A stretch of 37,519 nucleotides of DNA from Saprospiraceae bacterium (GTDB lineage Bacteria > Bacteroidota > Bacteroidia > Chitinophagales > Saprospiraceae). The position numbers and the translations under genes are program-made. Positions within the stretch are counted from its first letter, which is position 1. Every line of letters starts with the position of its first letter. Below, one piece after another: positions 3,399-37,519 of this stretch. The DNA is taken from the NCBI GenBank assembly GCA_030728245.1, contig JANQZX010000025.1:3617-41135 (forward strand). Reading direction: 5' to 3'. Under the pieces are notes generated by a model. It did not search any database. It was not told the DNA's origin and saw only the letters and a list, made by a program, of their open reading frames with translations.

Positions 3399-3477
3399 GG
3401 GATTAAAAATTTAAGTGAAAATAAAGTACCTTAGTGTTGAGAAAGCAGTTTACAGGTTCGTAAAATACAACTCTTTT

Positions 3478-19990: not shown

Positions 19991-22900
19991 TTATTTCTGT
20001 AAAATCAGATTTCCTGTATATTGTCCAAAACCATCGGTATATTTATAGATATAGACCCCTGCATGAGGCAATTCATTGGCTTGAAGGGTAAAAAGTGGAG
20101 AATCTCCTTTATTCAACTGCCAGGATTTTGTCCATATTTTTCTTCCCTGCACGTCATAAATATCTAAAACACCTTGAAGACCAGAAGCGGGAGGCAATTG
20201 AAAAGTAACCCAGTCTTTAAAAGGATTCGGCCAAAGCCGCAACCCACTATTGGTTGCGGCATTTGGTGAAGCATACTGAATGGTCAGGGGGGCGACCACC
20301 ACTGAATCAATGTTCTGTGTTGATAAGTAAGCCTCTGAATCAAAAGAATTATTATTTAATGCTATAGCATCAGAGAGATTAGTATGTCGAAGTGCTTCCA
20401 CCTCAATAAATCCTAGCACCTCACCAGCCTCGCTTTTTTTCAAATCGTCTGCATACCAGGACAAAGCCCAGGTATTATCATTTAATGGTTTACTACTGAT
20501 ATTGAATTCTTCAGAACCAGAGAAGCCATGTATTTTAATCAATTCCGGGTTCACTTGCAGGGCAAATTGTCCACCCCACCAGAGGTCACTGTGTTCAAAA
20601 TGTATAGGTAACCAGACCCGTTCCCCTGGTTTAAGCTTCCATTGTGGGAGTAAAAAGACTCTGGAAGATTCCTGGGAACGGGGGCTGATTCCATTTTCAG
20701 GGATTATACTATTATTAACATCTCCAACCTTTATGGCAACAAAATCACCATCGATCATATCTTTGAAAAGATTGGAAACTTCTTTTGATTCTGGGAAAGG
20801 CATTGACAATGGATCCCTTGGATTAGGGAACTGGAAACTTTTAGGAATGAAGCGCCATGGTTTATTCTCAGGAAAAGTATTGGTCACATTCAAAATCAAT
20901 CTTTGCAACTGAATGACATCTCTTACAGAAATCCTTCCATTTCCATCTACATCTGCTGCAATTATTTTGTAAGGTGATTCAAGCGCTTTAGAACCCGTCA
21001 GATGCCTATTAACCAGTATCAAATCGAGGGTAGTCACACCATCTGTATAATTACCTGTTTTACCAGGCATGAATTCATAGGTACCCCCTGGCACCAGATT
21101 CCCTAAGGAATAGGCTCCTTTATTATCAGTCATAGATTCCCCGGAATAATTTTTCATTTCCTCCACTTTGACCGTTGGGACACCGGAACCGTTTTCCAAT
21201 CTAATAGCTCCAGCAACGGTAACACCGCCACCACAAACAGCAAGTGGATCATTTATTCTAACTATAACATCACAACGCTCATAATTTCCTGCAATATCAA
21301 CTGCCCACACAGTCAACTGATTATCACCAATATCGTCACAAGCAAAAGTCAAAGAAGCGTTGGGCGGCGGACCGGTAAAACCTGGTGTGGGTCGGGCACC
21401 TATTCTCCATCGGATGGAATCGGTTGCTGTACAATTATCTACTGTAGCACCCGTATTAAATTCTACGGCATTCACAACAATAGTGCCAGAGGCTGCGAGC
21501 GACCTACTAACTATATTATTACAAAACAAATCTGGCGGTGTATTCTCGATGATAGCAAAAGTTGCATCACAGGTTCCAAAATTTCCACATATATCTGCAA
21601 CACGATAGGTTACATTATAAATACCTGCTGGAATTCGGGATATGTCTAAAGAATTTCCAAAATCACCACTTACGGAAATCGTAACCAGATCGGGAAGACA
21701 TTCCTGAATATTTGTTGGAACAGGAAGTCTTATGGTAGTATTACATGAATCCGGATCCAGATATATAACCAGACCCTCTGAAGGACAGATAAAACTGGGC
21801 GGCGTGTTATCGAATACCCTAATGAGTTGAGTGCCAACAATTCTACCTGATGCTGGCCCAATAGGGTCACCAGCTTCATAAACACAGGTGTCGGTAATCG
21901 TCCAGGTTCTGGAAATCTGAATACAGGCACCGGAAACATTATAATTTACCGCATCACTATGAGTAACCACAATACCCTTATAAGCAGGATTTAATACGGT
22001 AGGTGATCTGAATCCTACAGGTAGATTTACTGGATCCAGGGAAGCCAGATTAGTACAATTTGTCTGAGAATAATCAGGAGGAAAAGTAGCTCTTAAGGTA
22101 GTAGTATCATTTAATATTATGATTTGCGCTGGGCAGGTTGTTGTATCGATGCCCCCATAATAAACGGTCCAATCTCTTCTTATGACACCGGTTCCACCGC
22201 CGCATCCCAGATTTCTGTCGTCCTCATATTCTAGTTGAAACAAATTACAGGTACCATTTACAAAGGGAGCTCCAACCACACTGGTATCAGCTAAAAAGGC
22301 AGGATTTTGTAAAATAACCGTATCGGGACAAATAATCGTTCTTGGAAGTTTATCCACCACATCCACTTCTACCATACAAAAATTGGAGTTTCCGTAACAA
22401 TCGGTTACTTGAAGAGTGGCCATGTTATTAGTCAAAATTTCTGCACAAAAATATTTTAGCGAATCAGAGAATGGTAGAGGAGAAGCCGTCATTTTCTGAA
22501 GTTTAAAAGTCAGATTAGTACAGCATAAATCGGTTGCCTGCAGATAGAAGGAGCTGGGTTCCACCTGAGCTTCTCCAGTAAGCGTTAACGATACCTGAAT
22601 ACTTGAAGGACAGACCAAAACAGGCGGTGTATTATCTAATACCTGAACCATGCGCGTACATTGGGAAGTATTTCCACAAGGATCTGACACCATGTACATG
22701 ATACTGTGCAAGCCAGGAGGAACACCTGTTAATTGGCCTCCATTCCCATTTATAACACCATAGTTAGACATAATAACCACCCTAATCTGATTGTTTGGTG
22801 CACAGGAGTCTATGAAAGCAATGGGTGGAACGATAACGGTAGCACCACATTGTGTGGCAGACGAAGTAAATGCAACTAAAGTGTCGGAAATACAGGTTAA

Positions 22901-23806
22901 TCGAGGTTTTATAGTATCTATGACTTGAATAATTTGTTGGAAAGTACGTATTCCATTGGTACACCCATCGACAGCTGTCCAGTTTCTGATTAGGGTAAAG
23001 GTAGGCGCGCAACCATTGATTATTTGATCATTATAGGTGAGGGAAAGGCCACAAATATTTGTAGGCGTTATATTAAATCCGTTTAATTGAGGCCAACCTG
23101 TGCTATCGGGGGTTACATTGGGCGTTACACATGAAACGCCCCTTCTGCCAGCTACATTATCACGGTTTGCCGGAAAAACCAAGTCACCCACGACAGGCCT
23201 TCTTATATTTATTTTTTGAACACAAGTATTTTTCAATCCATTAAACAAGGTAATAGTCCAGGTTCTGTTTATGACACCAACAAGAGTATCGGTGCAGGCA
23301 TTAATTCTATTGTCGTATTTATCTTCATAGGTAATACTATATGAGTTACACTCTAACGAGGTAGCCCTACCCAATCGCGCGGTGTCTGTAGGCGTACCAC
23401 AAAGAACGGTGGTATCTCTCGGACAAATAACCAGAGGGGAACCCAGAGAAACCACTCTAAAGGAACCTACACATATATTTCCGCTGGGAATATGTCTGAT
23501 TCTTGCATAGAGCAGCTGATTTAGATAGGTACGGCCAACGAAAGGCGTTGTGGGTAAAAGCTGGCCATTGGGACCGAGCATAACCGTAATTTCATAATCT
23601 GTTGGCGCTGATGGTGTACAAATACCTGGATTCGTCTCGCTGAGAATCATTGCGGGCGTAATTCTAAGATTACAGGTAGAATCTGCGCTAATCAAAACAT
23701 TATTATTACAAATCAGTGTACACTGGCTGTGCAATAAAATAGGAAAATTTAAAAAGAAAGCAATTATAGCTATGATAATCCAATCTAATTTTTTGTAACC
23801 ACGCAT
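19991..23806 (-). CDS. T9SS cargo: HYR repeats, dockerin-like, cohesin-like, sorting domain (1271 aa)
   Basis: Signal peptide at about 8-27 (ends LLHSQ). Then six or so Cys-rich HYR/Ig-like repeats, recognised by the recurrent pattern D(N/T/K)xPPxxxCP (for example VLDNTPPVLVCPSS). Next come a carboxypeptidase-regulatory-like beta-sandwich (VTVAGAIRLENGSGVPTVKV) and a dockerin-like module. Its second calcium loop, DVDGNGRISVRD at residues 952-963, is canonical; its first loop (TDGVTTLD) has lost most ligands. A cohesin-like sandwich (GGQFALQVNPELIKI, then WALSWYADD) and a type A T9SS C-terminal domain (LRLWPNPF to the end) follow. It should be exported and fixed on or released from the surface. 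The same architecture is seen in the genes at 23928 and 35539. No catalytic domain is seen. Confidence 0.8.
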   Translation of the reverse strand: MRGYKKLDWIIIAIIAFFLNFPILLHSQCTLICNNNVLISADSTCNLRITPAMILSETNPGICTPSAPTDYEITVMLGPNGQLLPTTPFVGRTYLNQLLYARIRHIPSGNICVGSFRVVSLGSPLVICPRDTTVLCGTPTDTARLGRATSLECNSYSITYEDKYDNRINACTDTLVGVINRTWTITLFNGLKNTCVQKINIRRPVVGDLVFPANRDNVAGRRGVSCVTPNVTPDSTGWPQLNGFNITPTNICGLSLTYNDQIINGCAPTFTLIRNWTAVDGCTNGIRTFQQIIQVIDTIKPRLTCISDTLVAFTSSATQCGATVIVPPIAFIDSCAPNNQIRVVIMSNYGVINGNGGQLTGVPPGLHSIMYMVSDPCGNTSQCTRMVQVLDNTPPVLVCPSSIQVSLTLTGEAQVEPSSFYLQATDLCCTNLTFKLQKMTASPLPFSDSLKYFCAEILTNNMATLQVTDCYGNSNFCMVEVDVVDKLPRTIICPDTVILQNPAFLADTSVVGAPFVNGTCNLFQLEYEDDRNLGCGGGTGVIRRDWTVYYGGIDTTTCPAQIIILNDTTTLRATFPPDYSQTNCTNLASLDPVNLPVGFRSPTVLNPAYKGIVVTHSDAVNYNVSGACIQISRTWTITDTCVYEAGDPIGPASGRIVGTQLIRVFDNTPPSFICPSEGLVIYLDPDSCNTTIRLPVPTNIQECLPDLVTISVSGDFGNSLDISRIPAGIYNVTYRVADICGNFGTCDATFAIIENTPPDLFCNNIVSRSLAASGTIVVNAVEFNTGATVDNCTATDSIRWRIGARPTPGFTGPPPNASLTFACDDIGDNQLTVWAVDIAGNYERCDVIVRINDPLAVCGGGVTVAGAIRLENGSGVPTVKVEEMKNYSGESMTDNKGAYSLGNLVPGGTYEFMPGKTGNYTDGVTTLDLILVNRHLTGSKALESPYKIIAADVDGNGRISVRDVIQLQRLILNVTNTFPENKPWRFIPKSFQFPNPRDPLSMPFPESKEVSNLFKDMIDGDFVAIKVGDVNNSIIPENGISPRSQESSRVFLLPQWKLKPGERVWLPIHFEHSDLWWGGQFALQVNPELIKIHGFSGSEEFNISSKPLNDNTWALSWYADDLKKSEAGEVLGFIEVEALRHTNLSDAIALNNNSFDSEAYLSTQNIDSVVVAPLTIQYASPNAATNSGLRLWPNPFKDWVTFQLPPASGLQGVLDIYDVQGRKIWTKSWQLNKGDSPLFTLQANELPHAGVYIYKYTDGFGQYTGNLILQK

Positions 23807-23869
23807 GATAAATATTTTTAATAATTACAAGAGAGGCAATACCAAATTCATGCCAAACTGAATGATTTT

Positions 23870-23898
23870 AAAAAAAGCGACATCTAAAAAGATGCCGC
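23870..23898 (-). terminator. Terminator of the 1347-residue gene
   Basis: 9-bp stem with one G-U pair (23877-23885 with 23890-23898), 4-base loop, then seven T on the minus strand (23870-23876). It begins 30 bases after the stop codon, so the 1271-residue gene downstream must have its own promoter. Confidence 0.75.
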
Positions 23899-23927
23899 CT
23901 TATATAAACTATGGAAAAGCTTTTAAT

Positions 23928-26900
23928 TTATTTATTACCGGAGCTTAGGATCATTCTTTTAACATCGGTAAAAGAACTGGTTTCCAATCTATAGTGGTAA
24001 GCTCCATCACTCCACAAGCCATCTCTTTGGAAAGGAATTTCGTTATAACCCTTCTGAAAAATTCCTTTTGTTTCCCAAACTGATCTTCCGATCATATCAG
24101 TAATAGATATTTTAACCTCTTGTGATTGTGGTATAGTGAAACCTATAGTGGTATTTTGATAAAAAGGATTCGGATAATTTTGAAATAACTGGTAACCCCC
24201 TTTATCTATATCTTTAGATCCGTCTTTGAAAATAAGATTGAGATCGAGCATCCCACCTTCATGGGTGTATGCCTCAGGAACGGTAGGATGAGGGGCTACT
24301 TTTAACGCGTAGATTAACTCTGATGATTTTTTAGCCCTGAGAGTAAGTCTGAGCACGGGAGTGGTCGTGGTAGGCCAGGTTTTCTCGCGCATCACATTCC
24401 AACTGGCCGTTAGAATACCTTTTTCTTTATTAATAAGCGCAAAATTTTCATCTGAAATGCCAGGAACATCTCCAGCAGTATAATCTATTATTTCCAGTAT
24501 TCTCTCATCAAAATCGAAGGTAAATTGAAATCCAGCGACATCCTCCTGAGAAGCTGCATTTACCTCGATGGTAAATTCCTCTCCATAGTTAAACTTCAAA
24601 TTGGGTATTTGCAATTGGAGTTCTCCAAAAGTACTTCTTGGATTTTGTACAATGAGGCTATTTGGCGTTGCAGAACTATTTAGATCACCCACTTTAATAC
24701 CTATGAAATTAGCCTGGGCAAATTTTGTTTTAAAATCATCTAAGGTCTTAGCTTCAGGAAAAGGGGCCTTAAGTGGATTTATACCAGCAGGGAAGACATA
24801 ATCAGCGTCAATAAAGCGCCACGAATTATTCTGTGCACCTAAATCAGTATCTTTTCCTAAGATTAACTTCCTCAATTTTATTAAATCGAGCGTAGAAACA
24901 TTACCAGATCGATCAATATCAGCAGCAATTTGCTGGTAGGGAGATTTCAGTGAAATTATACCGAGGATAAACTTTTGGATTAGCACCAAATCCATGGTTG
25001 ACAGGCCATTAAGCAAATCGTCATTCTTATAAGGTTGTAATATATAGTTTTTACCAAAAGCTAAATTTGCTAATTCAAATGTGCCGGTAGCTGTAGTTAT
25101 CACGTTCATTGCTGGGTCATTCACCTCTTTTATGAGGACTTTTTCAACATCTTCTCCTTTTTCCGTTTTAATAACACCGGCTATTTTTCCGATAGGATTT
25201 GTTAAGCAAAGGCCATCATTATCCTGAACATCAACGGTAACGGTACAAAAATCACTGTTTCCTTTAGAGTCTGTCACCCAAAGTTCCACGGGTTGAATAC
25301 CAAAATCGGCACATGTAAAAGTTAACATAGTATCGAGTGGATGAGGAGGGATTATGTTCCCTGAATTACCTCTTTTAATACTTATTTTAATTGGGCCGCC
25401 ACAAGCATCGCTACTGGCAAGATTTATATCTTTAGCATCAACCATGGCCATGATAGCTGGCATTCTAGATAGATTTACCGCTATATTTTTACAAATCGGG
25501 GTAGGCGGTTTTTTATCAATCACCGTCACCGACGTTTGTCCTGTTACTTTATTACCGCAACCATCAGCTACAGAATAGGTAAAAGTTGTAGTACCTAAAG
25601 GATAGGTTCCACTGGCATTAGCTCCATTTTGATTTGCAAAAGGTGAGTTATTGGTAATGATAAGATTCTGATTACAATTATCGGTAGCCGTTGCCAAAGG
25701 AATTGTAACCTGAGCTACATTACAGTCAGTAAACAAATTAATAACCTGATTGGCAGGAACGTTCAAAACAGGTGGAGTTTTGTCCTCAACGATAATTAAC
25801 TGTGCGTAAGTAAACCGATGACCTGGAGAACCAGGCACATATTTACACAAATCTACTACTTCCCAGGTACGGTAAACTTTGAAACAGCCTGGAGAAGTCA
25901 TACCAAATACATTATCGGAGTAAGCAAAAGCAATTTGAGCACATAAAGGTTCTTTTACAACTGGCCTTCTGCTATTTATCGGAAGCTCATTCACGCCTAC
26001 CTGAGCGTTACAAGAATTTATTGTTACATCGGCAGGCCAGGTGATATGTTGAGCTAGTAAAACAGAATTATTAACAATAGTAACATTTTGGGTACAAGTA
26101 GCTTTTAATCCCCGGGCATCTGTAGCCGTAAAAGTACGGGTAAGAAGACCGGTATTACATTCCTCCATTTTCACATTGTGGGTAGAATCTAAAGTATAGC
26201 TGCAAGCTTCTAAAACGATAGGACTACCAAAACGACCTAGATTAATAAGTTCATCATTACATTCAGTGGTAGTATTGACAGGACAAATAATAACAGGGGG
26301 AAGTTTATCTTCGACCAACATTTTAACTTCGCAGGTATTATAAAAATTACCCCAAAGATCTCCACCTGGCTGTTCCCTGCTAGCATCAACAGGCCCATCC
26401 CCTGGATTTGAGATATACACTCTCATTTCAACGGTAATTCTACCTTTATCGACATCATCGCAACAAAAGGTAACATAATCATCAAACCATTCCTGATAAC
26501 CAGGAGCGGGAGAATCATCACCATTAGAACCGTTACAACTATTGGTATCTTTTCTGCGCACTTTATAATATATAGGAAGTCCGCAATTGTCTCTTGAACC
26601 ACTGTCAAAAGCTCTGGCAGAGGCATAGGCTGTACCCTCATTAGTCAGCGTAATATTTCCCGGACCGCTGCAGATGGCAACTGGAGGTGTAGTATCAAAA
26701 ACCTCCACCGTAGAGGTACAGACCGCGGTATTTCCGCATTTATCGATGGCCATATAGGTTATGGTATGTGTACCTAAAGGCATGCTTATTAAATTGGGAT
26801 AAGTTCCTGAAAATGGAGTTGTTACCATTAAATTTGGATCAGCATCACAGTTATCTGTTATGAGTTGAGGCGCGCTTAAAGGTACAAAAGCCAAGCAGGT

Positions 26901-27971
26901 TGACGGTTGAGTTGAAACCCTTTTAGGTAAAGGACAAACGATAACAGGCTTAGTGGTATCTTTAACCTGAATAATCTGAATATGAATAGTATCTTGGCTG
27001 TTACAAAGGTCGATGGCGGTCCAACGACGAATTACAGCAAAACTTATCCCTTCACAGGTTCTTGTTGTATCATCAGAATAAGAATAATTAATTTTACACA
27101 ATCCAGCGGAATTTATCACACTTCCGTTTACGGTAGGAAAACCTGTTATATTAGGGCTCACATTAGGCGTATTACAACTGAGCAAGGTATCACGTGGAAA
27201 AACGATTCTTCGAAGAGGAGTTAATGAATCGAGACCAGGCTTAAGCAAGCTGATTTTCTGAATACATGTGTCGGCATTACCATAAATATCAGCAACAATC
27301 CAACGTCTGAATATTTTTTGAAGGGTATCAAGCGAACAATCAGAAACAGAGACACTATCTTTATAATTATAGGTAAGTGTACCATTGCAATTATTAGTTA
27401 CGACGGTAGGTCTTCCCAGATTAATTCCAGAAGTATCAACACTACAGCTAACAATAGTATCACGGCAGGCAATAACGGGTGGCATTTTATTCACAATCCT
27501 GGCAAAACCATTACAGGAAAAGCCACCGGTACCAAAAACCAAAATTTCGATCCGAACAATCGTTCCGATATATTGATTTAAATTTACCGTGAGACTTCCA
27601 GTATCCCTCTTAATCAGCGTCCCACTTTGTGTAAATAGCGCAATAGACATATTAGAAGTTGAATAGGTCGTTGAAGCAGTATCGACAATAATAGCAGGAT
27701 GAATAACCCCCTCACAATTTTGATTTACTGCAATTTCCTTGGGTGCATTTATTGGTGCAGGGTTGCAGGTTAGAGTTTGGGCACCCATATTCTCTGATAA
27801 GAAAATAAGGAGGGAGAGAACCAGTAAAGGTCCGAACCTTAATACATTGGTTAAAGATAGATTCCCCAATCTAAGTAAATTAGTGGGGAAAGAGGGTACA
27901 TTTTTTTTTGCTTTTCCATTCATGATTTCCATAATTGCCGGATTTGAGATACGAGATAAAACCGTCCACAT
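23928..27971 (-). CDS. T9SS cargo: HYR repeats, dockerin-like, cohesin-like, sorting domain (1347 aa)
   Basis: Three in-frame ATGs (27971, 27932, 27923) can start it; the promoter-like sequence lies upstream of all. The signal segment FGPLLVLSLLIFLSENMGAQ comes after a long basic n-region. At least six HYR-type repeats follow (VFDTTPPVAICSGP, VEDKLPPVIICPVN and others). Then come a carboxypeptidase-regulatory-like domain (IGKIAGVIKTEKGEDVEKVL), a dockerin-like module with its second loop DIDRSGNVSTLD at residues 1018-1029 and a degenerate first loop, and a cohesin-like domain (VAGFQFTFDFDERILEI, LTASWNVM). A type A T9SS sorting domain (FQNYPNPFYQNTTIGF) ends the protein. It is a paralogue of the genes at 19991 and 35539 in layout. 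Function is likely surface adhesion or assembly; that is inference. Confidence 0.8.
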   Translation of the reverse strand: MWTVLSRISNPAIMEIMNGKAKKNVPSFPTNLLRLGNLSLTNVLRFGPLLVLSLLIFLSENMGAQTLTCNPAPINAPKEIAVNQNCEGVIHPAIIVDTASTTYSTSNMSIALFTQSGTLIKRDTGSLTVNLNQYIGTIVRIEILVFGTGGFSCNGFARIVNKMPPVIACRDTIVSCSVDTSGINLGRPTVVTNNCNGTLTYNYKDSVSVSDCSLDTLQKIFRRWIVADIYGNADTCIQKISLLKPGLDSLTPLRRIVFPRDTLLSCNTPNVSPNITGFPTVNGSVINSAGLCKINYSYSDDTTRTCEGISFAVIRRWTAIDLCNSQDTIHIQIIQVKDTTKPVIVCPLPKRVSTQPSTCLAFVPLSAPQLITDNCDADPNLMVTTPFSGTYPNLISMPLGTHTITYMAIDKCGNTAVCTSTVEVFDTTPPVAICSGPGNITLTNEGTAYASARAFDSGSRDNCGLPIYYKVRRKDTNSCNGSNGDDSPAPGYQEWFDDYVTFCCDDVDKGRITVEMRVYISNPGDGPVDASREQPGGDLWGNFYNTCEVKMLVEDKLPPVIICPVNTTTECNDELINLGRFGSPIVLEACSYTLDSTHNVKMEECNTGLLTRTFTATDARGLKATCTQNVTIVNNSVLLAQHITWPADVTINSCNAQVGVNELPINSRRPVVKEPLCAQIAFAYSDNVFGMTSPGCFKVYRTWEVVDLCKYVPGSPGHRFTYAQLIIVEDKTPPVLNVPANQVINLFTDCNVAQVTIPLATATDNCNQNLIITNNSPFANQNGANASGTYPLGTTTFTYSVADGCGNKVTGQTSVTVIDKKPPTPICKNIAVNLSRMPAIMAMVDAKDINLASSDACGGPIKISIKRGNSGNIIPPHPLDTMLTFTCADFGIQPVELWVTDSKGNSDFCTVTVDVQDNDGLCLTNPIGKIAGVIKTEKGEDVEKVLIKEVNDPAMNVITTATGTFELANLAFGKNYILQPYKNDDLLNGLSTMDLVLIQKFILGIISLKSPYQQIAADIDRSGNVSTLDLIKLRKLILGKDTDLGAQNNSWRFIDADYVFPAGINPLKAPFPEAKTLDDFKTKFAQANFIGIKVGDLNSSATPNSLIVQNPRSTFGELQLQIPNLKFNYGEEFTIEVNAASQEDVAGFQFTFDFDERILEIIDYTAGDVPGISDENFALINKEKGILTASWNVMREKTWPTTTTPVLRLTLRAKKSSELIYALKVAPHPTVPEAYTHEGGMLDLNLIFKDGSKDIDKGGYQLFQNYPNPFYQNTTIGFTIPQSQEVKISITDMIGRSVWETKGIFQKGYNEIPFQRDGLWSDGAYHYRLETSSFTDVKRMILSSGNK

Positions 27972-28011
27972 AAAAAACCAGCGAAATACCTTAATTAAGT
28001 ATTTCTGTTTT

Positions 28012-28044
28012 CAATAATATGTTACAATAAAAAATCATGCCAAA
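28012..28044 (-). promoter_or_regulatory. Possible promoter of the 1347-residue gene
   Basis: Minus-strand TTTG (28041-28044), a 21-base spacer and TATTATTG (28012-28019, one mismatch to TAnnTTTG). The -33 part lies in TTTGGCATGA, a ten-base sequence also found upstream of the 1271-residue gene (23848-23857). Confidence 0.4.
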
Positions 28045-28090
28045 TTACATATATAGATAATATTTAATTTAAAAAATTTACTTATACTTG

Positions 28091-28124
28091 AAAGGCCTCT
28101 ATCCGGATTAGGATAGAGGCCTTT
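28091..28124 (-). terminator. Terminator after the PorP/SprF gene
   Basis: 14-bp perfect stem (28091-28104 with 28111-28124), 6-base loop. T-tracts on either side are short (three T on the minus strand within the stem), so it may work weakly in both directions. It begins 30 bases past the porP stop. Confidence 0.65.
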
Positions 28125-28154
28125 TAAGCAAATAAAAAATGGTTATCTTATTGA

Positions 28155-29126: not shown

Positions 29127-29163
29127 GAATCTCAGATTAATATTTTAGCACTTTGGCGATAAA

Positions 29164-32100
29164 TTAGTTTTCCCTTAACAGGGTAATAGAACCTTCCAAT
29201 GGTTTATCGCCATTAAAGTCCAGGGTAAAATAATACACTCCTTGAGGTAAAAGCTCACCATTTATGGTTGTACCTTTCCAATCATTCCTATAATTTTTCT
29301 GATCGAGAACGAGTTGTCCCCAACGATTAAAAATACGAAGTTGATTTTGCTGGTATGCTGGGTCAAAGGTTACACAATTGATAATAAACTCCTCATTTAA
29401 GCCATCTCCATCGGGGGTAATCAGTTTGCGGTATTCTAAACAATCGAATCTTTCATCATTTACTTCAACGACAGATATAGCTGGATTAGGTGCGCATCCC
29501 CTGGAATCAGTTAACTGAAGGCCATAAATTCCCGGGCAAAGATTCAATAAAAACGAATCTCTTTTTCCAACAACCTGTGGCCAGGAGTAATAGTATGGAG
29601 GAAATCCACCGGTTGCGGAAGCGGTAATCTTTCCATCACAATTTCTATCATCGAGAGTTGGCGTCGCTTTAAGGGTAACTACAATAGGCGTTGGATCCTT
29701 TAAAGTATAGGTTTGGGTATATTTACAATTATTTCTATCCTCAACCTCTATGGAATAGGTACCCTGTGGAATTAAATTCAGGGAAGGACCTCGTACGCCA
29801 TTATTCCAAACATACACATACGTAGAACCAGGAACTCCACCAGAAGCAGAAACCACAATAGAACCATCTCTTGCTGCAGGACATCCAATATCAATCACAG
29901 AGGCATTCAATTCTACTTTTGTAGGAGCAGTAGCGTTGATTTCTCTTGTTATGGTGCAACCAAGTGGATCTGAAATTTTAACCTGGTACATTCCTGCGGC
30001 TGCATTTTGAAATAAGGAAGCGCTACTTGCCAAATTACCATTGAGCAACCATTCATAAACAAAAGAAGTACTTCCGCTATTATTTTTTGCTGTCACTTCC
30101 AGAATGCCATCTTTATTAGAAAGACAGCTAACAACGAATCCATTATAATTAGAATTTGCCTTTACATTGGCTGTCAATATATTCTTAGCCTCTACATTAT
30201 AAACCCTGACCACCTCGTTACCGGAAGCCTCTCCGATAATTACAGTATATACTCCTGACATAACATCAATTAGGTCTTTTGAGCTACTAATAGTGTCCCC
30301 TTTACTATTCACCCATCTAAATTTGTAAGGTGTTTTACCCCCTTGAACATCCAGAATAACAGATCCATTAAGATCTTCCGGACAATCACTTTTTGTGATA
30401 GCAGGTTTCGCAGAAAAAGTATTTACAAAGATGGGCGCTCCCACAAAAGTACAACCGTTGGCATCCCTTATTGAAGGAGTGTAACTACCTTCACAAAGAC
30501 TAATCAATTGCAGACCCGTATTATTTGTATTCCAATTAACAGTGTAAGCGGCGGTGCCACCAGAAATAGATAAAACAATTCTACCTGTACATCCACTTTC
30601 CTCACTATCGTGTTTTACGCTAGCTTCAACAGTAAAAGGAGTAGGTGTTGAAATAGTGAACGAACCTTCTTTTTTGGTATTTATCGCGTCCTCCACAACA
30701 TAATTAATAACACCGCCTCTAAGATTTTCCAGATTAAGAATACCATTTGCTGTATTGAAAACCCGACCATTTAAGGAAAGAGTTAATTTATAAGGGCTCG
30801 TTCCTCCACTTATCATCACTTTGGCTTTACCCGTAGTATCTCCTGGACAAAGAACACCTGTGGTAGTAACGTCGATATCAAGAGGCACCAATTTGTATTC
30901 AATATTAAAACAAGTATCTACAGGACAGGAAGAATTATCACTTACCTTCACGCAATACTTACCAGTTACCAAGGTTTCAATGGTAGAAGAAGTAGCCCCA
31001 TTATCCCATAAAAAGGTGTAAGGTGGGGTACCGCCTAATACTGAAAGCGATATTTGGCCATTATTATTTGAAGGTGCCCCCGTAACATGAGTTATTGTTG
31101 GGGTTACTCTTGGTTTGCTTTGTTCTGTTAAAGTTACGGACAATGATAAGGTTGCATTTTGTGCATCGGTGACTGTCACTGAATAATTTCCAGGACCCAG
31201 GTTACTTAAATTTTGAACCGTTTGTCCGTTACTCCATTTGTAAGAAAATGGAGCAACTCCGCCAGACAGTGACAATGTTACGGAGCCAGTACTTGATCCT
31301 TCGCAGGGATTAACGACTACAGCGGGAGCAAATTGAAGTTTACGGACCATTTTGACGCAAATCTCCGCTCTACATGCTGTTGTATCCCTAACTATCAGGC
31401 AATAATTACCCGTATCAAGATTGGAAATATTCTTAGTAGTTGCTGTGTATGTCCCTGGACCTGTCCAATTATAGGTTACCAGGCCTTTTGTTCCCTGCAC
31501 TGTCAAATCTATTGCTCCGTCATTTCCGTTATTTATATAGGTAGGTTGAACTGCTGAAATGGTTATACCATCCGTTTGCCCAACAGTAATTGAACGAAAT
31601 AGTTGACACCCTGTTGCATCTGTTAAAGTAACATTATAATTATCAGGCGCAAGATTTGTTTGAATTGCCTGAGATGGAAGACCTTTATCCCAAAGGTAGG
31701 AATAAGTTGTTTCACCTCCTGTAACTGAAAGCTCGATCGACCCAGTATTTCTACCTAAACAAATGGCATCCACCTTTTGAATAGAAAGACTAAGATTCGA
31801 CTGTTTAATAACCTGTGGCGTTGATACAATAGCACAACCCAATGCATCAGTAAGTGTTAATTGATAGGTTCCCAGAGGCACGCTTTTTAATTCAGGGGCA
31901 GCAGATAAACCGCCACTCCAGGCATAAGTATAAGGTTTTTGTCCACCAGTCACCACTGCCTTCAAGGTACCTAATTCTTGATTTGCACAACCTGCATCCG
32001 TTTTGGATATCTGAGAAATCAACGCAGTATCAGCACCTGTCACCACAAAAGTAGCGACAGCATTCAGAGGATTACCAACATTGGTTACAGTAACTGTATA

Positions 32101-34602
32101 AGTACCCTTTGCCACATTTTGTAAATCTTTTGATGTTGCCTGATTACTCCAAAGATAAGTAAAGGTTCCTGTACCTTCTGAAACCGAAATACTAATACCT
32201 CCTGTATTGGAACCAAAACAAGAAACTGATTTAATAGTAGCGCTTGGTGATATGACTGGTGGTACTAAGTTACCGGCACGAACGGTTCCCGGAATAAATT
32301 GATAAGGGATAGCCGTTTCGTTTTTATCTAAAATTTCTGTAGTAGCCGTTGGATCGTGGGTGATTCTGGATGAGCCATTTTCACTTAAAATAGTAAAGCA
32401 TAAATTAAAAATCACCGTATTATTTGGCACAGATACTCCCGCAACATTTGGGTCTAACCATGAAAGTTTAATTTTTCCTGGAAGATTTGTTCCTGTTCCT
32501 GGTAACCCAAATTGTGATTCATTTAACCCAGCAAGATTAAAATCAGATAAAGTATCAAATTTTAATCTTATCGGATCATAAGCCAAACTAAACTCAAGAC
32601 CAAGAATATCTTTAAAGTTTAATACGGAGATAGGCATGCAAACCTTATCGCCAACAACTCCAGTTGCGTCGCCGACTTTAACGGTAAAATCAGTCGTATT
32701 CACTAATCCCTCTATGAACACCTCGCCGTCTGTAAATCCGGGAGTAAGTTTATTTTGTAGGCTATCCAGGACTTCAAAATTACTCTTATTAAAGCGAATA
32801 GGCACTGGTCCAGCGCCTTGTGCGGTAAAACAAGCTTTAAAAAGAACTGTATTATTTACCACTGAAATACCCTTGGTATCTGAACTGACCCAAGACATTC
32901 TGATATTTCCTGCTACATTAGAACCTTGTCCGGGTAAACCGAAGGAATTAACGCTTAGATCTTGTAATCCAAAGCGAGTGACCGAGTCAAATCGTAATTG
33001 AGCAGCGTCATAAGTTAGTGTAAATTGTGTCGCTGATATTTTATTGAAACCTGATGCACTAATATCAATACAAATGGGCTCATTCGCTTCAACAGCCCCA
33101 CCAGTAACCTTAAAAGTAGGCCCGTTTACTGAAGCACCACCACTACCTGGTTTACCTAGGGTAATCGTACCAGATTGCGTGGAATAGGGAAGAAGTAAAT
33201 CTGAAGCGTTGATAATTTCACCTGTTGTAGGAATCGAAATGGAGGTATTCCCAGAAGAATCTCTCGCTGTGAAACATAGTTCAAACAGCGTAGCGCCATC
33301 AGCCAGCGTCGTCTTTTGGCCTCTGCTATCGAACCATCCTAAAATAAGTGAGCCAGGTCTGTTTAAACCATCTCCTGGTTTTCCTATAGCAGATTCTTCA
33401 AAACCTCCGGGAGACAAAGTACTATTAAAATTCCTAATTGATTTGAACAATAATTTAGTTGAATCATAATTCATTTTAAATTGTAACCCAATAATATCTT
33501 TGAATCCTTCTATGGTAACGGGAACACAAACTTCGGAACCAAAACCAACAGAAGCATTTCCCACTAAAACCTTAAAATTATCAGAAGTGGTTGTTCCGCC
33601 GGCACCTACAGTAATTTGACCTTGTCTGCCTTCAAAAACAACTTCTCTGTTACTTGAATCTATAATTTCTGCTATTGCATCGAAAGTAATATTGGTTGTT
33701 CCATCCGTTTGTCCGGCTGCGAAACAAACCTGAAAGATCGAAAGATTATCTGCAAGGGTTACTCCTTTTGCTTCGTTATCAAACCATGAACATTTAATTT
33801 TTCCCAATGGATTTGCACCACGTCCTGGCATACCAAATTGTACGGTATCGAGTCCAGGAACCTGAAAATTTCTCAATGAGGTGAAGGTTAACAAGCTGGA
33901 ATTATAATTCATGGTGAACTCCATACCAGCTATTTTAGTAAAGTTTTGAGTATTCACATTCAAGCAAAAACTTTCCCCTTTCGCCACTGATTTGTCCTCA
34001 ATGTCCAATATAAAGTTTCCCACATTACCCGTGGAACCCCCACCTGTACTTCCACCGCCAGTGCTTCCGCCGCCCGTACTTCCACCACCTCCAGTGCTTC
34101 CACCACCTGTGCCACCTGCCCCAATGATGATAACAGGCGCATTTACTGTACTGGGAACCAAAGCCTCTGATAGATTTATGATTTCAATATTATTAACTCT
34201 AATAGTGTCTTGTGCATCAGCATTCACCGCGGTAAAGCAAACTTGAAACAAGGTACTTGCAGCAGGTATAGTGATTCCCTTTAATTGGTCATCGAACCAA
34301 GCCATATTTAGCTTAGCAGATTTACCGTCAGGTGCCACAACATTATTAAAAGCACCAGACAAACCGGATGCTGCCGGATTAAATGCCTGCACTCTGCTGT
34401 AGGTTAATTTTTGAGGATTGTAATTTAACGATAACTGAACGCCAATTAAACTGGTAAAATTAGTTACCGTCACATTTGAACAAAAAGCAGCCCCTTTAGC
34501 CACTGTAGTATCTTTAATAGCTATGTTTAACGTTTGCGCGTTTAAGAAATGACTGAAAATTAAAAGCCCAAAAATAAGAACCTGGCTAATTGTTAACTTC
34601 AT
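29164..34602 (-). CDS. SprB-like giant surface protein with five cohesin-like domains (1812 aa)
   Basis: Signal peptide 1-22 (ends FLNAQ). Cohesin-like domains lie at about 24-160, 196-335, 342-485, 496-632 and 637-777, sharing the patterns NFxxIxGxxFxxxYD and SWFDxxxKGxTLxxxxxxFxxCF. Domains 1 and 2 are joined by a Gly/Ser/Thr linker (161-195). Each cohesin has two Cys at matching places (C41/C122, C213/C293, C359/C443, C511/C591, C655/C735), probably a disulfide. About twelve SprB-type repeats (C-G-x-x-x-G-x-I, GGxxPYxYxW, GxYxVxVTD) span ~787-1715. The end is a gliding-type (CHU_C, type B) sorting domain: LITPDGDGLNEEF, FNRWGQLV, PQGVYYFTL. The PorP/SprF gene follows after 37 bases and a single-cohesin gene precedes it by 50. 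It may act as a surface scaffold or adhesin; binding partners are hypothetical. Confidence 0.82.
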   Translation of the reverse strand: MKLTISQVLIFGLLIFSHFLNAQTLNIAIKDTTVAKGAAFCSNVTVTNFTSLIGVQLSLNYNPQKLTYSRVQAFNPAASGLSGAFNNVVAPDGKSAKLNMAWFDDQLKGITIPAASTLFQVCFTAVNADAQDTIRVNNIEIINLSEALVPSTVNAPVIIIGAGGTGGGSTGGGGSTGGGSTGGGSTGGGSTGNVGNFILDIEDKSVAKGESFCLNVNTQNFTKIAGMEFTMNYNSSLLTFTSLRNFQVPGLDTVQFGMPGRGANPLGKIKCSWFDNEAKGVTLADNLSIFQVCFAAGQTDGTTNITFDAIAEIIDSSNREVVFEGRQGQITVGAGGTTTSDNFKVLVGNASVGFGSEVCVPVTIEGFKDIIGLQFKMNYDSTKLLFKSIRNFNSTLSPGGFEESAIGKPGDGLNRPGSLILGWFDSRGQKTTLADGATLFELCFTARDSSGNTSISIPTTGEIINASDLLLPYSTQSGTITLGKPGSGGASVNGPTFKVTGGAVEANEPICIDISASGFNKISATQFTLTYDAAQLRFDSVTRFGLQDLSVNSFGLPGQGSNVAGNIRMSWVSSDTKGISVVNNTVLFKACFTAQGAGPVPIRFNKSNFEVLDSLQNKLTPGFTDGEVFIEGLVNTTDFTVKVGDATGVVGDKVCMPISVLNFKDILGLEFSLAYDPIRLKFDTLSDFNLAGLNESQFGLPGTGTNLPGKIKLSWLDPNVAGVSVPNNTVIFNLCFTILSENGSSRITHDPTATTEILDKNETAIPYQFIPGTVRAGNLVPPVISPSATIKSVSCFGSNTGGISISVSEGTGTFTYLWSNQATSKDLQNVAKGTYTVTVTNVGNPLNAVATFVVTGADTALISQISKTDAGCANQELGTLKAVVTGGQKPYTYAWSGGLSAAPELKSVPLGTYQLTLTDALGCAIVSTPQVIKQSNLSLSIQKVDAICLGRNTGSIELSVTGGETTYSYLWDKGLPSQAIQTNLAPDNYNVTLTDATGCQLFRSITVGQTDGITISAVQPTYINNGNDGAIDLTVQGTKGLVTYNWTGPGTYTATTKNISNLDTGNYCLIVRDTTACRAEICVKMVRKLQFAPAVVVNPCEGSSTGSVTLSLSGGVAPFSYKWSNGQTVQNLSNLGPGNYSVTVTDAQNATLSLSVTLTEQSKPRVTPTITHVTGAPSNNNGQISLSVLGGTPPYTFLWDNGATSSTIETLVTGKYCVKVSDNSSCPVDTCFNIEYKLVPLDIDVTTTGVLCPGDTTGKAKVMISGGTSPYKLTLSLNGRVFNTANGILNLENLRGGVINYVVEDAINTKKEGSFTISTPTPFTVEASVKHDSEESGCTGRIVLSISGGTAAYTVNWNTNNTGLQLISLCEGSYTPSIRDANGCTFVGAPIFVNTFSAKPAITKSDCPEDLNGSVILDVQGGKTPYKFRWVNSKGDTISSSKDLIDVMSGVYTVIIGEASGNEVVRVYNVEAKNILTANVKANSNYNGFVVSCLSNKDGILEVTAKNNSGSTSFVYEWLLNGNLASSASLFQNAAAGMYQVKISDPLGCTITREINATAPTKVELNASVIDIGCPAARDGSIVVSASGGVPGSTYVYVWNNGVRGPSLNLIPQGTYSIEVEDRNNCKYTQTYTLKDPTPIVVTLKATPTLDDRNCDGKITASATGGFPPYYYSWPQVVGKRDSFLLNLCPGIYGLQLTDSRGCAPNPAISVVEVNDERFDCLEYRKLITPDGDGLNEEFIINCVTFDPAYQQNQLRIFNRWGQLVLDQKNYRNDWKGTTINGELLPQGVYYFTLDFNGDKPLEGSITLLREN
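34018..34122 (-). repeat. Gly/Ser/Thr linker-coding tandem repeat
   Basis: Codons for residues 161-195 of the 1812-residue protein form imperfect 12-15-base units encoding GGGST. Such short tandem units can change copy number by slippage, so the linker length may vary between strains. Confidence 0.75.
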
Positions 34603-34652
34603 AAAAATCGGTTTTGGAATGAATGCTTAAATAAAAATGCAGCAAGAAAGCA

Positions 34653-35456: not shown

Positions 35457-35496
35457 TTTCTAAATTTTAATTTAACACAATGAACCAAAACCATTA

Positions 35497-35504
35497 CAAA
35501 ATTA
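35497..35504 (-). promoter_or_regulatory. Promoter -7 box of the cohesin operon
   Basis: Minus-strand TAATTTTG matches TAnnTTTG exactly, 41 bases upstream of the ATG at 35456. No clear -33 element. No similar box precedes the multi-cohesin or PorP/SprF genes, supporting one operon. Confidence 0.45.
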
Positions 35505-35538
35505 AGGAAATAAGTTAATAAATATGACCATTTGTGAG

Positions 35539-37519
35539 TTATTCAAATTTGACCATTTTAAGCGTCCTTTTATACTCTGCAGATTCTATGGTAAAATAAT
35601 AAATACCGGAAGAATGAAAGGTATTTTTTTCAAAATCCAGCACATGTTCCCCTGCACTAAACCATTGATTTGACTGCTTGATTAATCTTCCGGTAACATC
35701 AGTAATACTCCATTTCACTAAACTTTGAGTAGGAATTTGAAACCAAACATTGGTAGTTTCCGTAAAAGGATTCGGGAAATTTTGCTTTACTTCCGTAAAA
35801 TCAATCGATTTACTTTTTTCTATCCAACCTAACTCTAAACGCAATAAATCATTATTTATATATGCCTCAGGGGACATAAATCTGGAATTTAGAGAAATGG
35901 CGTCTTTAATAAAGCCATCCATTTTAGCTTTAAGCACAATGGTAGTCAGCGCTGTATCGGTAGTGCTTCCATTCCAGCTGGCCGTTAGCAGACCATCCTG
36001 AGGGAAAAATCCAAAAAATTCTTTGGACGCCAGACCTTGTTTCATTTCAACCAAATCAAACACCTTTTCATCGAATTGCAATGCAAATTGGAATCCTTCC
36101 AGACCCTTTGTATTTTTTAATAAAATTGGAATTTCAACTAACTGACCTGCCTCAAAAAATTCATTTTCTAAAAATAAATTCCAGGTTCCCTTTTCCTCAC
36201 CACTTCTTATTCCAGGAGCCACCGGACCATTAATTTGTGCTGAACCATTTACATCTCCGATTTTAATACCTATAAAATCAGCCCTTTTGTGCCCATCAAT
36301 GGGATTATAAGAAACCTCTTCAGGGAAAGGTGTTTTCCATGGGTTATTTGAATCCGGGAAAACGAAAGAGGAGCTAACAAACCGCCAGCTTTCATTAAAC
36401 TGAAAAGCTAAATCAATGCCAAGAATCAACTTTCTTAACTGAATCAAATCGATGGTACTCAGTGTTTTTGAATTATTTACATCGGCCGCTATAATTTTAT
36501 AGGGCGAATTAAAAGGCTCTACGTTTAAAATATGCTTGCTTATCAGCACTAAATCGAAAGTAGTTATCCCATTTAAAAAACCTCTGTTAAGCGAGGGCTT
36601 AACAGTATAATTTCTATTTAAAGTCAGGGACGGAATAGAATATCTTCCATCGATGGCAGTATTCACTGTCGATGTAGAGGTACCTGACAGTCTTACTGAA
36701 ACACCCTCGAGTCTTGCTTGATTTTCATTAGTAATAACTCCTGAAATAGATGCAGAACCACTACCTTTGCAAATGTTAATGTTATCTTCCACATTGATAT
36801 AAGTGGTACAAAAACTGTGATTTCCTTTGTTATCCCAGGCATGAATTTCAACAAAAACCAAGCCTACTGTGTCCGAACACATTAAGGTTATAGAAGTGGA
36901 ATCTTTATTAAATGGGACACCTACTCTATTGATAGAATAATGGGTAATTTGATTCTGCTTGTTATTCTGGGCATTAACTGCTCCCTGACCATTACAATCA
37001 AATACAGCAGCACTTATGAAATCTGAAGCCCAGACGACCATCATCCCCTCTCCATCCAGTCCAGGCATCAATCCAGTAACCACGCCATTTAAACAAAGCG
37101 GAGTTGTGGCTATTTTATCTGCAACAATGAAAGGAATTCTATTTATGGCAACATTACCACAACCATCTCTTACTGACACCAAAAGATCATGCTTTCCTTC
37201 AGGTAAATTTTTCAATTTCACACTCCCAGTTGCTAAAGAATCTGTAGTCATACTGGTGCTTGCCGCTAAGGTCCAATCAGATTGAAAGGTGATAGGTGCG
37301 GCTACTGCGGTACCCTGATTTAATGCCACACTTACAGCGGTTATCGTTAGATTACTTTTACAGAGATCAGCCACTTTGAAACGTACATCAATATTTGCTA
37401 AACAAGTATTGGGAAAAGTAGGAAAAGTATCTGGCGTCGGTATTGTTACGATAGGTGGGGTTGAATCAAATATTTTAACTATCTGCGTATATTGGTAAGA
37501 AAAAGCCGGCGTGGAATCT
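35539..37519 (-). CDS. T9SS cargo: HYR, dockerin-like, cohesin-like, sorting domain (5' end outside window)
   Basis: The frame stays open to the right edge (IVKIFDSTPPIVTIP near the edge is a HYR-repeat boundary), so the protein is longer than the ~660 residues seen and the GTG at 37374 is not its start. Visible order: HYR-type repeats, a carboxypeptidase-regulatory-like domain (ASISGVITNENQARLEGVSV), a dockerin-like module with second loop DVNNSKTLSTID (36448-36483) and a degenerate first loop (FLNGITTFD), a cohesin-like domain (LEGFQFALQFDEKVFDL, LLTASWNGS), and a type A T9SS sorting domain (VKQNFPNPFTETTNVWF). Layout is the same as in the two large genes at 19991 and 23928. It ends 82 bases upstream of the single-cohesin gene. 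Confidence 0.8.
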   Translation of the reverse strand, partial: DSTPAFSYQYTQIVKIFDSTPPIVTIPTPDTFPTFPNTCLANIDVRFKVADLCKSNLTITAVSVALNQGTAVAAPITFQSDWTLAASTSMTTDSLATGSVKLKNLPEGKHDLLVSVRDGCGNVAINRIPFIVADKIATTPLCLNGVVTGLMPGLDGEGMMVVWASDFISAAVFDCNGQGAVNAQNNKQNQITHYSINRVGVPFNKDSTSITLMCSDTVGLVFVEIHAWDNKGNHSFCTTYINVEDNINICKGSGSASISGVITNENQARLEGVSVRLSGTSTSTVNTAIDGRYSIPSLTLNRNYTVKPSLNRGFLNGITTFDLVLISKHILNVEPFNSPYKIIAADVNNSKTLSTIDLIQLRKLILGIDLAFQFNESWRFVSSSFVFPDSNNPWKTPFPEEVSYNPIDGHKRADFIGIKIGDVNGSAQINGPVAPGIRSGEEKGTWNLFLENEFFEAGQLVEIPILLKNTKGLEGFQFALQFDEKVFDLVEMKQGLASKEFFGFFPQDGLLTASWNGSTTDTALTTIVLKAKMDGFIKDAISLNSRFMSPEAYINNDLLRLELGWIEKSKSIDFTEVKQNFPNPFTETTNVWFQIPTQSLVKWSITDVTGRLIKQSNQWFSAGEHVLDFEKNTFHSSGIYYFTIESAEYKRTLKMVKFE

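What the first reader, a model, noticed from the sequence alone, without database searches (positions are those of the whole stretch)
19991..37519. Possible T9SS-exported cohesin-dockerin surface assembly without recognisable enzymes
Six consecutive minus-strand genes encode dockerin-like modules (three proteins), a five-cohesin protein, a single-cohesin protein and a PorP/SprF partner. The modules are recognised from sequence patterns: calcium loops DVDGNGRISVRD, DIDRSGNVSTLD and DVNNSKTLSTID, and the cohesin SWFDxxxKGxTL pattern. In cellulosomes such modules bind each other and carry glycosidases; here the dockerin proteins carry HYR adhesion-type repeats and no catalytic domain, and the scaffold carries SprB repeats. 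I infer a non-cellulosomal adhesive or motility assembly.
Basis: partly seen in the sequence, partly recalled or inferred. Interest (0 to 1): 0.75.

Follow-up and report, generated by a model that had tools for sequence, protein, structure and literature searches.

The report
Bacterial surface cohesin–dockerin scaffold cluster
These genes encode exported surface proteins built from matching plug-and-socket modules (dockerins and cohesins) best known from cellulose-degrading complexes, here mostly carried by adhesion-type proteins; the sequence evidence for the modules is strong, but no binding has been measured.

Summary
Six consecutive minus-strand genes encode three dockerin proteins (P0001, P0002, P0006), a five-cohesin scaffold with SprB repeats (P0004), a one-cohesin protein (P0005) and a PorP/SprF protein (P0003). 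A dockerin profile without rows from the window or its genus scores the three at 186–221 bits; the best of 200 shuffled proteins reaches 1.5.

Three corrections to the interpretation. (1) Each dockerin protein also carries its own cohesin, between the dockerin and the type IX sorting tail. (2) The window stops at a contig end; two genes further on lies a haem-peroxidase–dockerin–cohesin gene, and the genome also has a trypsin-like dockerin protein. 'No enzymes' is true only of these six genes. (3) Two hairpins split the run, so it is probably not one operon.

The system is family-wide (probably Saprospiraceae): both modules occur in 108 of 120 family genomes. Cohesins beside dockerins and other cohesins are two clean groups (one change, 221 sequences). 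Of 18 dockerin modules without a neighbouring cohesin, 16 sit in proteins that also lack the sorting tail.

Best reading: a PorP/SprF-anchored cohesin array organising adhesin-like proteins and a few enzymes on the cell surface. Binding is inferred. New variant of a known kind.

The parts
19991..23806 (-). P0001: 1271 aa; signal peptide by eye, sub-threshold HYR/Ig-like repeats, dockerin module, cis-cohesin, type A T9SS tail
20705..21232 (-). P0001 dockerin module (CarboxypepD_reg-like + two dockerin repeats + K.GD motif)
   Evidence: 186.4 bits with own-genus rows left out
20309..20638 (-). P0001 cis-cohesin (no Pfam hit; found by family profile, residues 1057-1166)
   Evidence: 36.8 bits with own-genus rows left out
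23870..23899 (-). terminator-like hairpin with T-run after P0002
   Evidence: -14.5 kcal/mol, z -6.3, 0 of 200 shuffles as good; place
23928..27971 (-). P0002: 1347 aa; HYR repeats, dockerin module, cis-cohesin, type A T9SS tail
24669..25199 (-). P0002 dockerin module
   Evidence: 192.9 bits
24318..24617 (-). P0002 cis-cohesin (Pfam stretch)
   Evidence: PF00963 29.7 bits, over cut-off
28087..28125 (-). strong hairpin between P0003 and P0002 (no long T-run)
   Evidence: -24.8 kcal/mol, z -7.2, 0 of 200 shuffles as good; place
28155..29126 (-). P0003: PorP/SprF family outer-membrane protein, probable partner of P0004
29164..34602 (-). P0004: 1812 aa scaffold; five cohesins, 11 SprB repeats, type B (CHU_C) T9SS tail
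34126..34527 (-). P0004 cohesin 1
33604..34011 (-). P0004 cohesin 2
33154..33576 (-). P0004 cohesin 3
32710..33117 (-). P0004 cohesin 4
32275..32688 (-). P0004 cohesin 5
29185..29433 (-). P0004 CHU_C / type B sorting domain
   Evidence: 76.3 bits; TIGR04131 47.2 bits
34653..35456 (-). P0005: 267 aa, one scaffold-type cohesin + type A T9SS tail
   Evidence: 71.6 bits
35539..37518 (-). P0006 (C-terminal 659 aa in the window): dockerin module, cis-cohesin, type A T9SS tail; continues on contig C94
36238..36759 (-). P0006 dockerin module
   Evidence: 220.6 bits
35914..36153 (-). P0006 cis-cohesin (Pfam stretch)
37465..37519 (.). 55 bases at the window and contig end, identical to the first 55 bases of contig C94; no other copy in the genome

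Best explanation
A lineage-wide, type-IX-secreted cohesin-dockerin surface system.

SHOWN from sequence: P0004 (five cohesins, SprB repeats, type B tail) and P0003 (PorP/SprF) sit together, as do their counterparts in other genera; P0005 is a one-cohesin protein with a type A tail; P0001, P0002 and P0006 are large proteins ending in dockerin - own cohesin - type A tail.

INFERRED mechanism: P0004 crosses the outer membrane through the T9SS and is held by P0003, presenting cohesins. Dockerin proteins are exported separately and join the array through calcium-dependent dockerin-cohesin contacts. The cohesin next to each dockerin either caps that dockerin until a scaffold competes for it, or passes the contact on to the next protein, as in an adaptor scaffoldin. 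The result would be a cross-linked adhesive or protective coat, which also carries a few enzymes (a haem peroxidase; perhaps a trypsin-like protease). Neither the binding nor the adhesive role is demonstrated.
For: Modules far above chance. The 20 best Foldseek matches of the P0006 model are all chains from cohesin or cohesin-dockerin entries (best 3ul4_A, E 1.4e-6, TM by target length 0.54; the matched part of the model is not printed). Cohesins and dockerins occur together: both in 108 of 120 family genomes, neither in 11, cohesin alone in 1, dockerin alone in 0 (E<=1e-8; the cohesin profile also matches cis-cohesins, so the counts are not fully independent).

A PorP/SprF gene is adjacent to all 14 scaffold-type ORFs (two or more cohesins, or one cohesin in over 700 aa) that do not run off their locus: 13, the 14th (L179) in the overlapping locus L071. 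Four of the 14 are from the own genus. The order mono-cohesin, multi-cohesin, PorP/SprF recurs in the own genus and in L068, L121, L122, L128, L160 and L071/L179. A Doc-Coh gene lies just upstream in the own genus and in L121, L122, L128, L160.

SprA, PorU and 15 PorP-family genes over cut-off are in the genome. In Flavobacterium johnsoniae two type B substrates need cognate PorP/SprF proteins for secretion (PMC12618676, abstract) and SprF binds SprB (PMC9143113, abstract and section 2.7).
Against: No binding data, and no two-chain structure prediction was possible. In 140 of 158 distinct dockerin modules a cohesin follows in the same chain, and AF2 gives pTM 0.86 and 0.84 for two such dyads; this fits self-pairing, which would leave scaffold cohesins without partners. 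Scaffold and cis-cohesins are separate groups, so they may not bind the same dockerins. Dockerin loop I has leucine, not a ligand, at position 5 in 65 of 98 modules. The hairpins between P0003/P0002 and P0002/P0001 argue against a single operon. Eleven of 120 family genomes show neither module, so the system is not universal.
Confidence: 0.5

Rival explanations
1. Cis lock: the dockerin and the cohesin beside it bind each other within the chain (or between two copies of one protein) and form a rigid stalk next to the sorting tail. No trans assembly with P0004 takes place; P0004 cohesins bind something else or nothing.
For: 93 of 96 dockerin ORFs in named relatives run through the cohesin; 140 of 158 distinct modules have it. 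Cis-cohesins separate from all other cohesins by one change (136 against 85 sequences, 29 and 38 of them from the own genus), as expected if the pair evolves as a unit. AF2 pTM is 0.86 and 0.84, although the block between the modules averages pLDDT 59 (first model) and 78-79 (second model, where a block inside the cohesin is lower, 72); I read the pTM as a defined orientation of the two modules, which is inference because no coordinates or PAE were available.
Against: Scaffold cohesins are conserved beside dockerin genes and co-occur with them, which would be pointless without a partner. Doc-only proteins with no cis-cohesin exist. In known adaptor scaffoldins a dockerin and a cohesin in one chain bind different partners (recalled).
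Confidence: 0.3
2. Enzyme-display complex like a cellulosome: the main job is to carry hydrolases or redox enzymes, and the HYR proteins are structural.
For: In this genome dockerins sit on a haem peroxidase (461.4 bits) and on C138, a homologue (33% identity over 624 columns) of L176, which has Trypsin_2 over cut-off. In other family genomes dockerin-only proteins carry Trypsin/Trypsin_2 (L169, L171, L176; L173 weakly) or Redoxin (L166, L170). Three of 18 tails without cis-cohesin match the CelK cellobiosidase model (best E 1.7e-4), presumably through its dockerin. A T9SS-tailed cohesin scaffold with dockerin enzymes was predicted in Ca. Stygibacter (PMC8542988, section 7).
Against: No catalytic Pfam family in the 57 N-terminal parts scanned (shortest 57 of 81). 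No glycosidase domain listed for any dockerin protein given to Pfam. Enzyme carriers are a minority in the own genome (2 of 8 dockerin proteins; three of the eight, C51, C89 and C95, are cut or masked at the N terminus).
Confidence: 0.12
3. Gliding adhesin system: P0004/P0003 is an SprB/SprF-like moving adhesin and the cohesins are generic beta-sandwich filler.
For: SprB repeats, type B tail and adjacent PorP/SprF, the arrangement of SprB/SprF in F. johnsoniae (PMC9143113, section 2.7).
Against: PorP/SprF genes are many (15 over cut-off here), so the pair alone does not mean gliding. GldJ only below cut-off. Five well-preserved cohesins co-occurring with dockerins are unlikely to be filler.
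Confidence: 0.1

Closest known systems
T9SS-tailed cohesin scaffoldin of Ca. Stygibacter, Cloacimonadota (PMC8542988; section 7 and passages read)
   Same: Tandem-cohesin scaffold with a C-terminal surface-attachment domain (CTD); secreted proteins with C-terminal dockerins; predicted from genomes only
   Different: There: carbohydrate-binding domains and GH18, GH57 and peptidase dockerin enzymes. Here: SprB repeats, type B tail with PorP/SprF neighbour, HYR/Ig-type dockerin proteins, and a cohesin fused to the dockerin
Clostridial cellulosomes (PF00963 with PF00404; PDB 3ul4, 4uyp and others)
   Same: Cohesin fold and dockerin repeats
   Different: No glycosidases or CBMs found on the proteins scanned; T9SS export; degenerate first dockerin loop; cohesin in cis
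Adaptor scaffoldins (e.g. R. flavefaciens ScaC; recalled)
   Same: Dockerin and cohesin in one chain
   Different: Here the dyad is fused to large ectodomains and a sorting tail, and is the common form in the set collected (140 of 158 modules)
SprB/SprF and other type B substrates of F. johnsoniae (PMC9143113, PMC12618676)
   Same: SprB repeats, type B tail, adjacent PorP/SprF
   Different: Carries five cohesins; gliding function not shown
[quoted passage not shown] 2009; seen only as a reference entry in PMC8542988; paper not held)
   Same: By its title, cohesins and dockerins outside cellulosomes
   Different: Could not be read; whether it lists this lineage is unknown to me

Membership tests
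Cohesin (PF00963) | Profile match over the curated cut-off | tested here: met
   P0004 133.7 bits, five stretches; P0002 29.7; but P0005 and P0006 below cut-off and P0001 not listed; all found by leave-out profiles
Cohesin (PF00963) | Cohesin fold | tested here: met
   P0006 dyad AF2 model: top Foldseek matches are cohesin entries, best E 1.4e-6, TM by target 0.54. Scaffold cohesins not folded; their profile matches PDB cohesins, best E 1e-8
Dockerin type I (PF00404) | Two F-hand calcium loops with ligands at 1, 3, 5, 12 (positions recalled) | tested here: inconclusive
   Loop II canonical (D1 98/98, N/D3 95/98, S/D/N5 97/98, D12 98/98). Loop I: D12 98/98, D/N1 80/98, D/N3 72/98, Leu5 65/98. 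Pfam: P0001 at cut-off, two below
Dockerin type I (PF00404) | Calcium-dependent binding to a cohesin | not testable with these tools
   No binding assay or two-chain prediction
Cellulosome | Dockerin-bearing glycosidases with carbohydrate-binding modules | tested here: not met
   No GH or CBM family listed for any dockerin or cohesin protein given to Pfam; 3 of 18 tails match the CelK model in NCBIfam, presumably by its dockerin
Cellulosome | Multi-cohesin non-catalytic scaffold | tested here: met
   P0004 and C7 (L039:5681-11398), five cohesins each by the family profile; Pfam lists five and two stretches
T9SS substrates | Type A or type B C-terminal sorting domain | tested here: met
   TIGR04183 over cut-off in P0001, P0002, P0005, P0006; TIGR04131 in P0004
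T9SS substrates | Host has the T9SS | tested here: met
   SprA and PorU over cut-off
SprB/SprF gliding adhesin | Role in gliding | tested here: inconclusive
   GldJ below cut-off, 346.1 of 458.2 bits; no motility data
Adaptor scaffoldin | Dockerin and cohesin of one chain bind different partners | not testable with these tools
   Dyad present; partners unknown

The most novel reading that the evidence does not exclude
Cohesins as adaptors for proteins without a secretion tail. Dockerin proteins of this lineage fall into two classes: Doc-Coh with a T9SS tail, and Doc-only with neither cohesin nor tail, stopping within 30 residues of the dockerin. Stand-alone cohesins likewise come with a tail (P0005) and without (C35 type, 163 aa). 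The fused Doc-Coh-tail protein looks like the sum of a Doc-only protein and a cohesin-tail protein. The bold reading is that tail-less dockerin enzymes (trypsin-like, redoxin-like) are carried out or retained by binding a tailed cohesin, a piggy-back route through the type IX system; or, as the tamer alternative, that they pair with tail-less cohesins inside the periplasm. Either would be a cohesin-dockerin role in protein localisation rather than in substrate degradation.
Probability: 0.18. Interest if true: 0.85.

Novelty: new variant of a known kind. Interest (0 to 1): 0.6.

Why it matters
Cohesins and dockerins are studied mostly as cellulosome parts (general knowledge). Here they are a family-wide trait of what are probably Saprospiraceae, bacteria common in wastewater and saline habitats (PMC9304909 and PMC10384058, search-listing titles and abstract beginnings only), mostly on adhesin-like proteins, tied to type IX secretion by a conserved gene order. 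If the contacts are real, the group has a modular way to build its surface, with specific pairs that can be tested one by one; the dyads also offer a natural case of a dockerin tethered to its own cohesin. The pattern 'no cohesin, no sorting tail' makes a concrete question about localisation testable.

Tried and rejected
Split (circularly permuted) dockerin loop. An invariant K-x-G-D-[VIL]-[ND]-x-[SN] motif about 100 residues after loop I ends the dockerin module and looks like positions 1-5 of a calcium loop, while loop I keeps 6-12. I considered that the two halves form one site. Against it: loop I itself has D/N at position 1 in 80 of 98 and at position 3 in 72 of 98 modules, so a local, degenerate loop explains it as well. 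Without coordinates this stays undecided. The A4 rows were collected with the pattern [KR].GD, so its K, G and D columns are biased; 2 of 151 hits checked lacked the pattern (1 of 55 and 1 of 96).

Single operon: rejected as likely because of two hairpins. A Bacteroidota promoter-like pattern (recalled) gave 3 matches against 2.2 expected, none in the cluster.

Cellulosome membership: rejected (no glycosidase or CBM listed on the proteins scanned; see the CelK model matches).

Literature: terms for dockerin with type IX secretion, Saprospiraceae (19), non-cellulosomal (31), HYR domain (32), T9SS (84), genus names (85) and same polypeptide/intramolecular (96) showed me no paper describing this system; only open-licence PMC papers were searched, and for most hits I saw the listing only (searches listed 25 of 48 and 15 of 172). 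Searches added nothing used here.

Selection to keep in mind. The fourteen loci L165-L178 were picked because the matches stopped early, so 16 of 158 is not a frequency. The two modules without cis-cohesin but with long tails (L070, L174; 238 and 226 residues) may hold a divergent cohesin. The CTD scan used 60 of 137 Doc-Coh tails, drawn at random. The Pfam census took the 57 shortest of 81 N-terminal parts, some cut by locus ends. One search kept the best 80 of 136 confirmed relatives (79 loci). Listings were cut by the tool. 67 of the 221 cohesins and 31 of the 158 dockerin modules are from the own genus.

Full report
WHAT IS THERE. Pfam finds five cohesins, 11 SprB repeats and a CHU_C (type B) sorting domain in P0004, PorP_SprF in P0003, and type A sorting domains in P0001, P0005 and P0006 (P0002 just below Pfam's cut-off); NCBIfam puts P0001, P0002, P0005 and P0006 over the type A cut-off. 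Dockerin hits are weak by Pfam: at the cut-off in P0001, below it in P0006 and P0002. To exclude chance and circularity I scored the window proteins with profiles that leave out the window's genome and six same-genus genomes (dockerin, cis-cohesin) or the window rows (scaffold cohesin): dockerins 186-221 bits, cis-cohesins 37-88, P0004 cohesins 54-72, P0005 71.6; 200 shuffled proteins reach at most 2.0.

WHAT WAS MISSED. Each dockerin is followed in the same chain by a cohesin and then the type A tail. In P0002 this cohesin is over Pfam's cut-off. An AF2 model of the P0006 dyad (mean pLDDT 90.3, pTM 0.86) has chains from cohesin or cohesin-dockerin entries as its 20 best PDB matches (best E 1.4e-6). 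A second model, of the P0002 dyad, gives pLDDT 88.0 and pTM 0.84. The high pTM I read as a defined mutual orientation of the two modules; coordinates and PAE were not available, so this is inference.

BEYOND THE WINDOW. The window ends at the end of contig C25. Its last 55 bases are identical to the start of contig C94 and occur nowhere else, and the reading frame of P0006 continues there as a 901-residue ORF in which Pfam finds nothing at E<=0.001. In the same-genus genome G002 the whole run lies on one contig, which confirms the order: P0001, P0002, PorP, P0004, P0005, P0006, an NADH:flavin oxidoreductase, and an animal-haem-peroxidase protein with dockerin, cohesin and tail. The peroxidase domain scores 461.4 bits in this genome and 464.2 in G002. 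The genome has eight dockerins of this type: seven with a cis-cohesin (the seven rows) and one without, C138. C138 has no protease hit of its own in Pfam but aligns over 624 columns at 33% identity with L176, which has Trypsin_2 over cut-off. There is a second five-cohesin scaffold (C7) beside another PorP/SprF gene, and a 163-aa tail-less cohesin (C35). So 'without recognisable enzymes' is true of the six genes but not of the system.

HOW WIDE. In a sample of 120 genomes of the same family (the window's own included) the dockerin module occurs in 108 (102 of 112 genera) and the cohesins in 109; both in 108, cohesin alone in one (G087), neither in 11 (E<=1e-8). In a phylum sample of 118 genomes 12 match, three of them from the same family; of the other nine, one is strong (G205, E 8e-39) and eight are weak (E 9.6e-18 to 8.4e-10). 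Named relatives are labelled Saprospiraceae, Saprospirales, Lewinella, Flavilitoribacter or Haliscomenobacteraceae, or less specifically Bacteroidetes/Bacteroidota or Chitinophagales; two loci carry a Thermoanaerobaculia label, probably a mis-binned genome. The family name for the window is therefore an inference.

GENE ORDER. Mono-cohesin (260-278 aa reading frames), multi-cohesin scaffold and PorP/SprF lie in this order in the own genus and in L068, L121, L122, L128, L160 and L071/L179; a Doc-Coh gene is next upstream in the own genus and in L121, L122, L128, L160. All 14 scaffold-type ORFs not cut by a locus end have PorP/SprF adjacent, on either side (13, one seen in the overlapping locus); four of the 14 are from the own genus (window, C7, L054, L066), and one of the 14 (L181) has a single detected cohesin. 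Within the window the gaps P0005-P0004 and P0004-P0003 are 50 and 37 bases; hairpins of -24.8 and -14.5 kcal/mol lie between P0003 and P0002 and between P0002 and P0001, so P0002 and P0001 are probably separate units.

TWO COHESIN TYPES, TWO DOCKERIN CLASSES. On a FastTree of 221 cohesins, the 136 that follow a dockerin and the 85 in scaffolds or alone are separated by one change; 67 of the 221 are own-genus. Of 158 distinct dockerin modules, 140 have a cis-cohesin and 18 do not; 16 of the 18 end within 30 residues of the module. The type A tail is found in 60 of 60 sampled Doc-Coh tails (of 137) and in 2 of the 18 others. Two of the 18, L070 and L174, have tails over 200 residues; they are presumably the two with the sorting domain, and may hold a divergent cohesin. 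The Doc-only class includes trypsin-like and redoxin-like proteins. Doc-only dockerins are clustered but not one clade (6 changes against 13-16 in 200 shuffles). Tail-less mono-cohesins exist too: a 163-165-aa frame in all seven genomes of the genus, and others in three further genera, one of them (L084) with a lipobox by eye. This co-variation of cohesin and tail is the most unusual observation here; its set was partly selected (see Tried and rejected), so it shows a class, not a frequency.

DOCKERIN DETAILS. Loop II is canonical. Loop I lacks a ligand at position 5 in most modules (Leu in 65 of 98). A K.GD.[ND].[SN] motif closes the module in both classes. A CarboxypepD_reg-like domain precedes the dockerin (PF13620 sub-threshold in P0006 and P0001, not listed for P0002, over cut-off in C138); this recalls the X-module before some cellulosomal dockerins (recalled).

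MECHANISM. I think a PorP/SprF-held cohesin array that gathers Doc-Coh adhesin-like proteins is most likely (0.5), with a purely cis dockerin-cohesin lock the main rival (0.3). The export steps rest on family membership and on papers about F. johnsoniae and P. gingivalis (PMC9143113, abstract and section 2.7; PMC12618676, abstract). Binding, calcium dependence and adhesion are inference.

KNOWN OR NEW. Among the papers I looked into, a CTD-tailed cohesin scaffold with dockerin enzymes is predicted in Cloacimonadota (PMC8542988, section 7), which also mentions a planctomycete 'planctosome'. [quoted passage not shown] I found no description of this cluster, of the Doc-Coh-tail dyad or of the tail-less class. 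It is a new variant of a known kind, not a new kind.

Noticed in passing
G000 C7 (L039:5681-11398, minus): Second five-cohesin scaffold (1905 aa) with a CHU_C tail and a PorP/SprF gene at the contig end; two cohesins pass in Pfam, five are found by the family profile.
   Followed up: partly
G000 C35 (L040:6132-6623, minus): 163-aa secreted single cohesin with no sorting tail, present in all seven genomes of the genus; tail-less counterparts in three other genera, one (L084) with a lipobox by eye.
   Followed up: partly
G000 C94 (L035:5118-8099, minus): Animal haem peroxidase (461.4 bits) fused to dockerin, cohesin and T9SS tail, two genes upstream of P0006.
   Followed up: partly
G000 C138 (L034:5734-7665 and 3067-5121): Trypsin-like protein with dockerin but no tail (homologue of L176); a pullulanase-like gene (alpha-amylase, CBM48) lies upstream, one small ORF between.
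   Followed up: partly
G000 C120 (L038:3488-5974, plus): 828-aa Big_9/cadherin-type protein with a more canonical dockerin loop (GDTNNDGIVSLSD; Pfam dockerin 20.2 bits, below cut-off) and a T9SS tail; looks like a different dockerin type.
   Followed up: no
G000 C31 (L043:6593-7270, plus): 225-aa ORF with a cis-type cohesin and sorting tail but no dockerin: a possible decayed or truncated copy.
   Followed up: no
dockerin modules, e.g. window 36238-36759 (minus): K.GD.[ND].[SN] motif that closes the dockerin module and resembles the first half of a calcium loop (K.GD in 98 of 98 aligned modules, which were collected with that part).
   Followed up: partly
L131 and L134: Two loci labelled Thermoanaerobaculia hold the Saprospiraceae-type module at 65 and 63% identity; likely a mis-binned MAG.
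   Followed up: no
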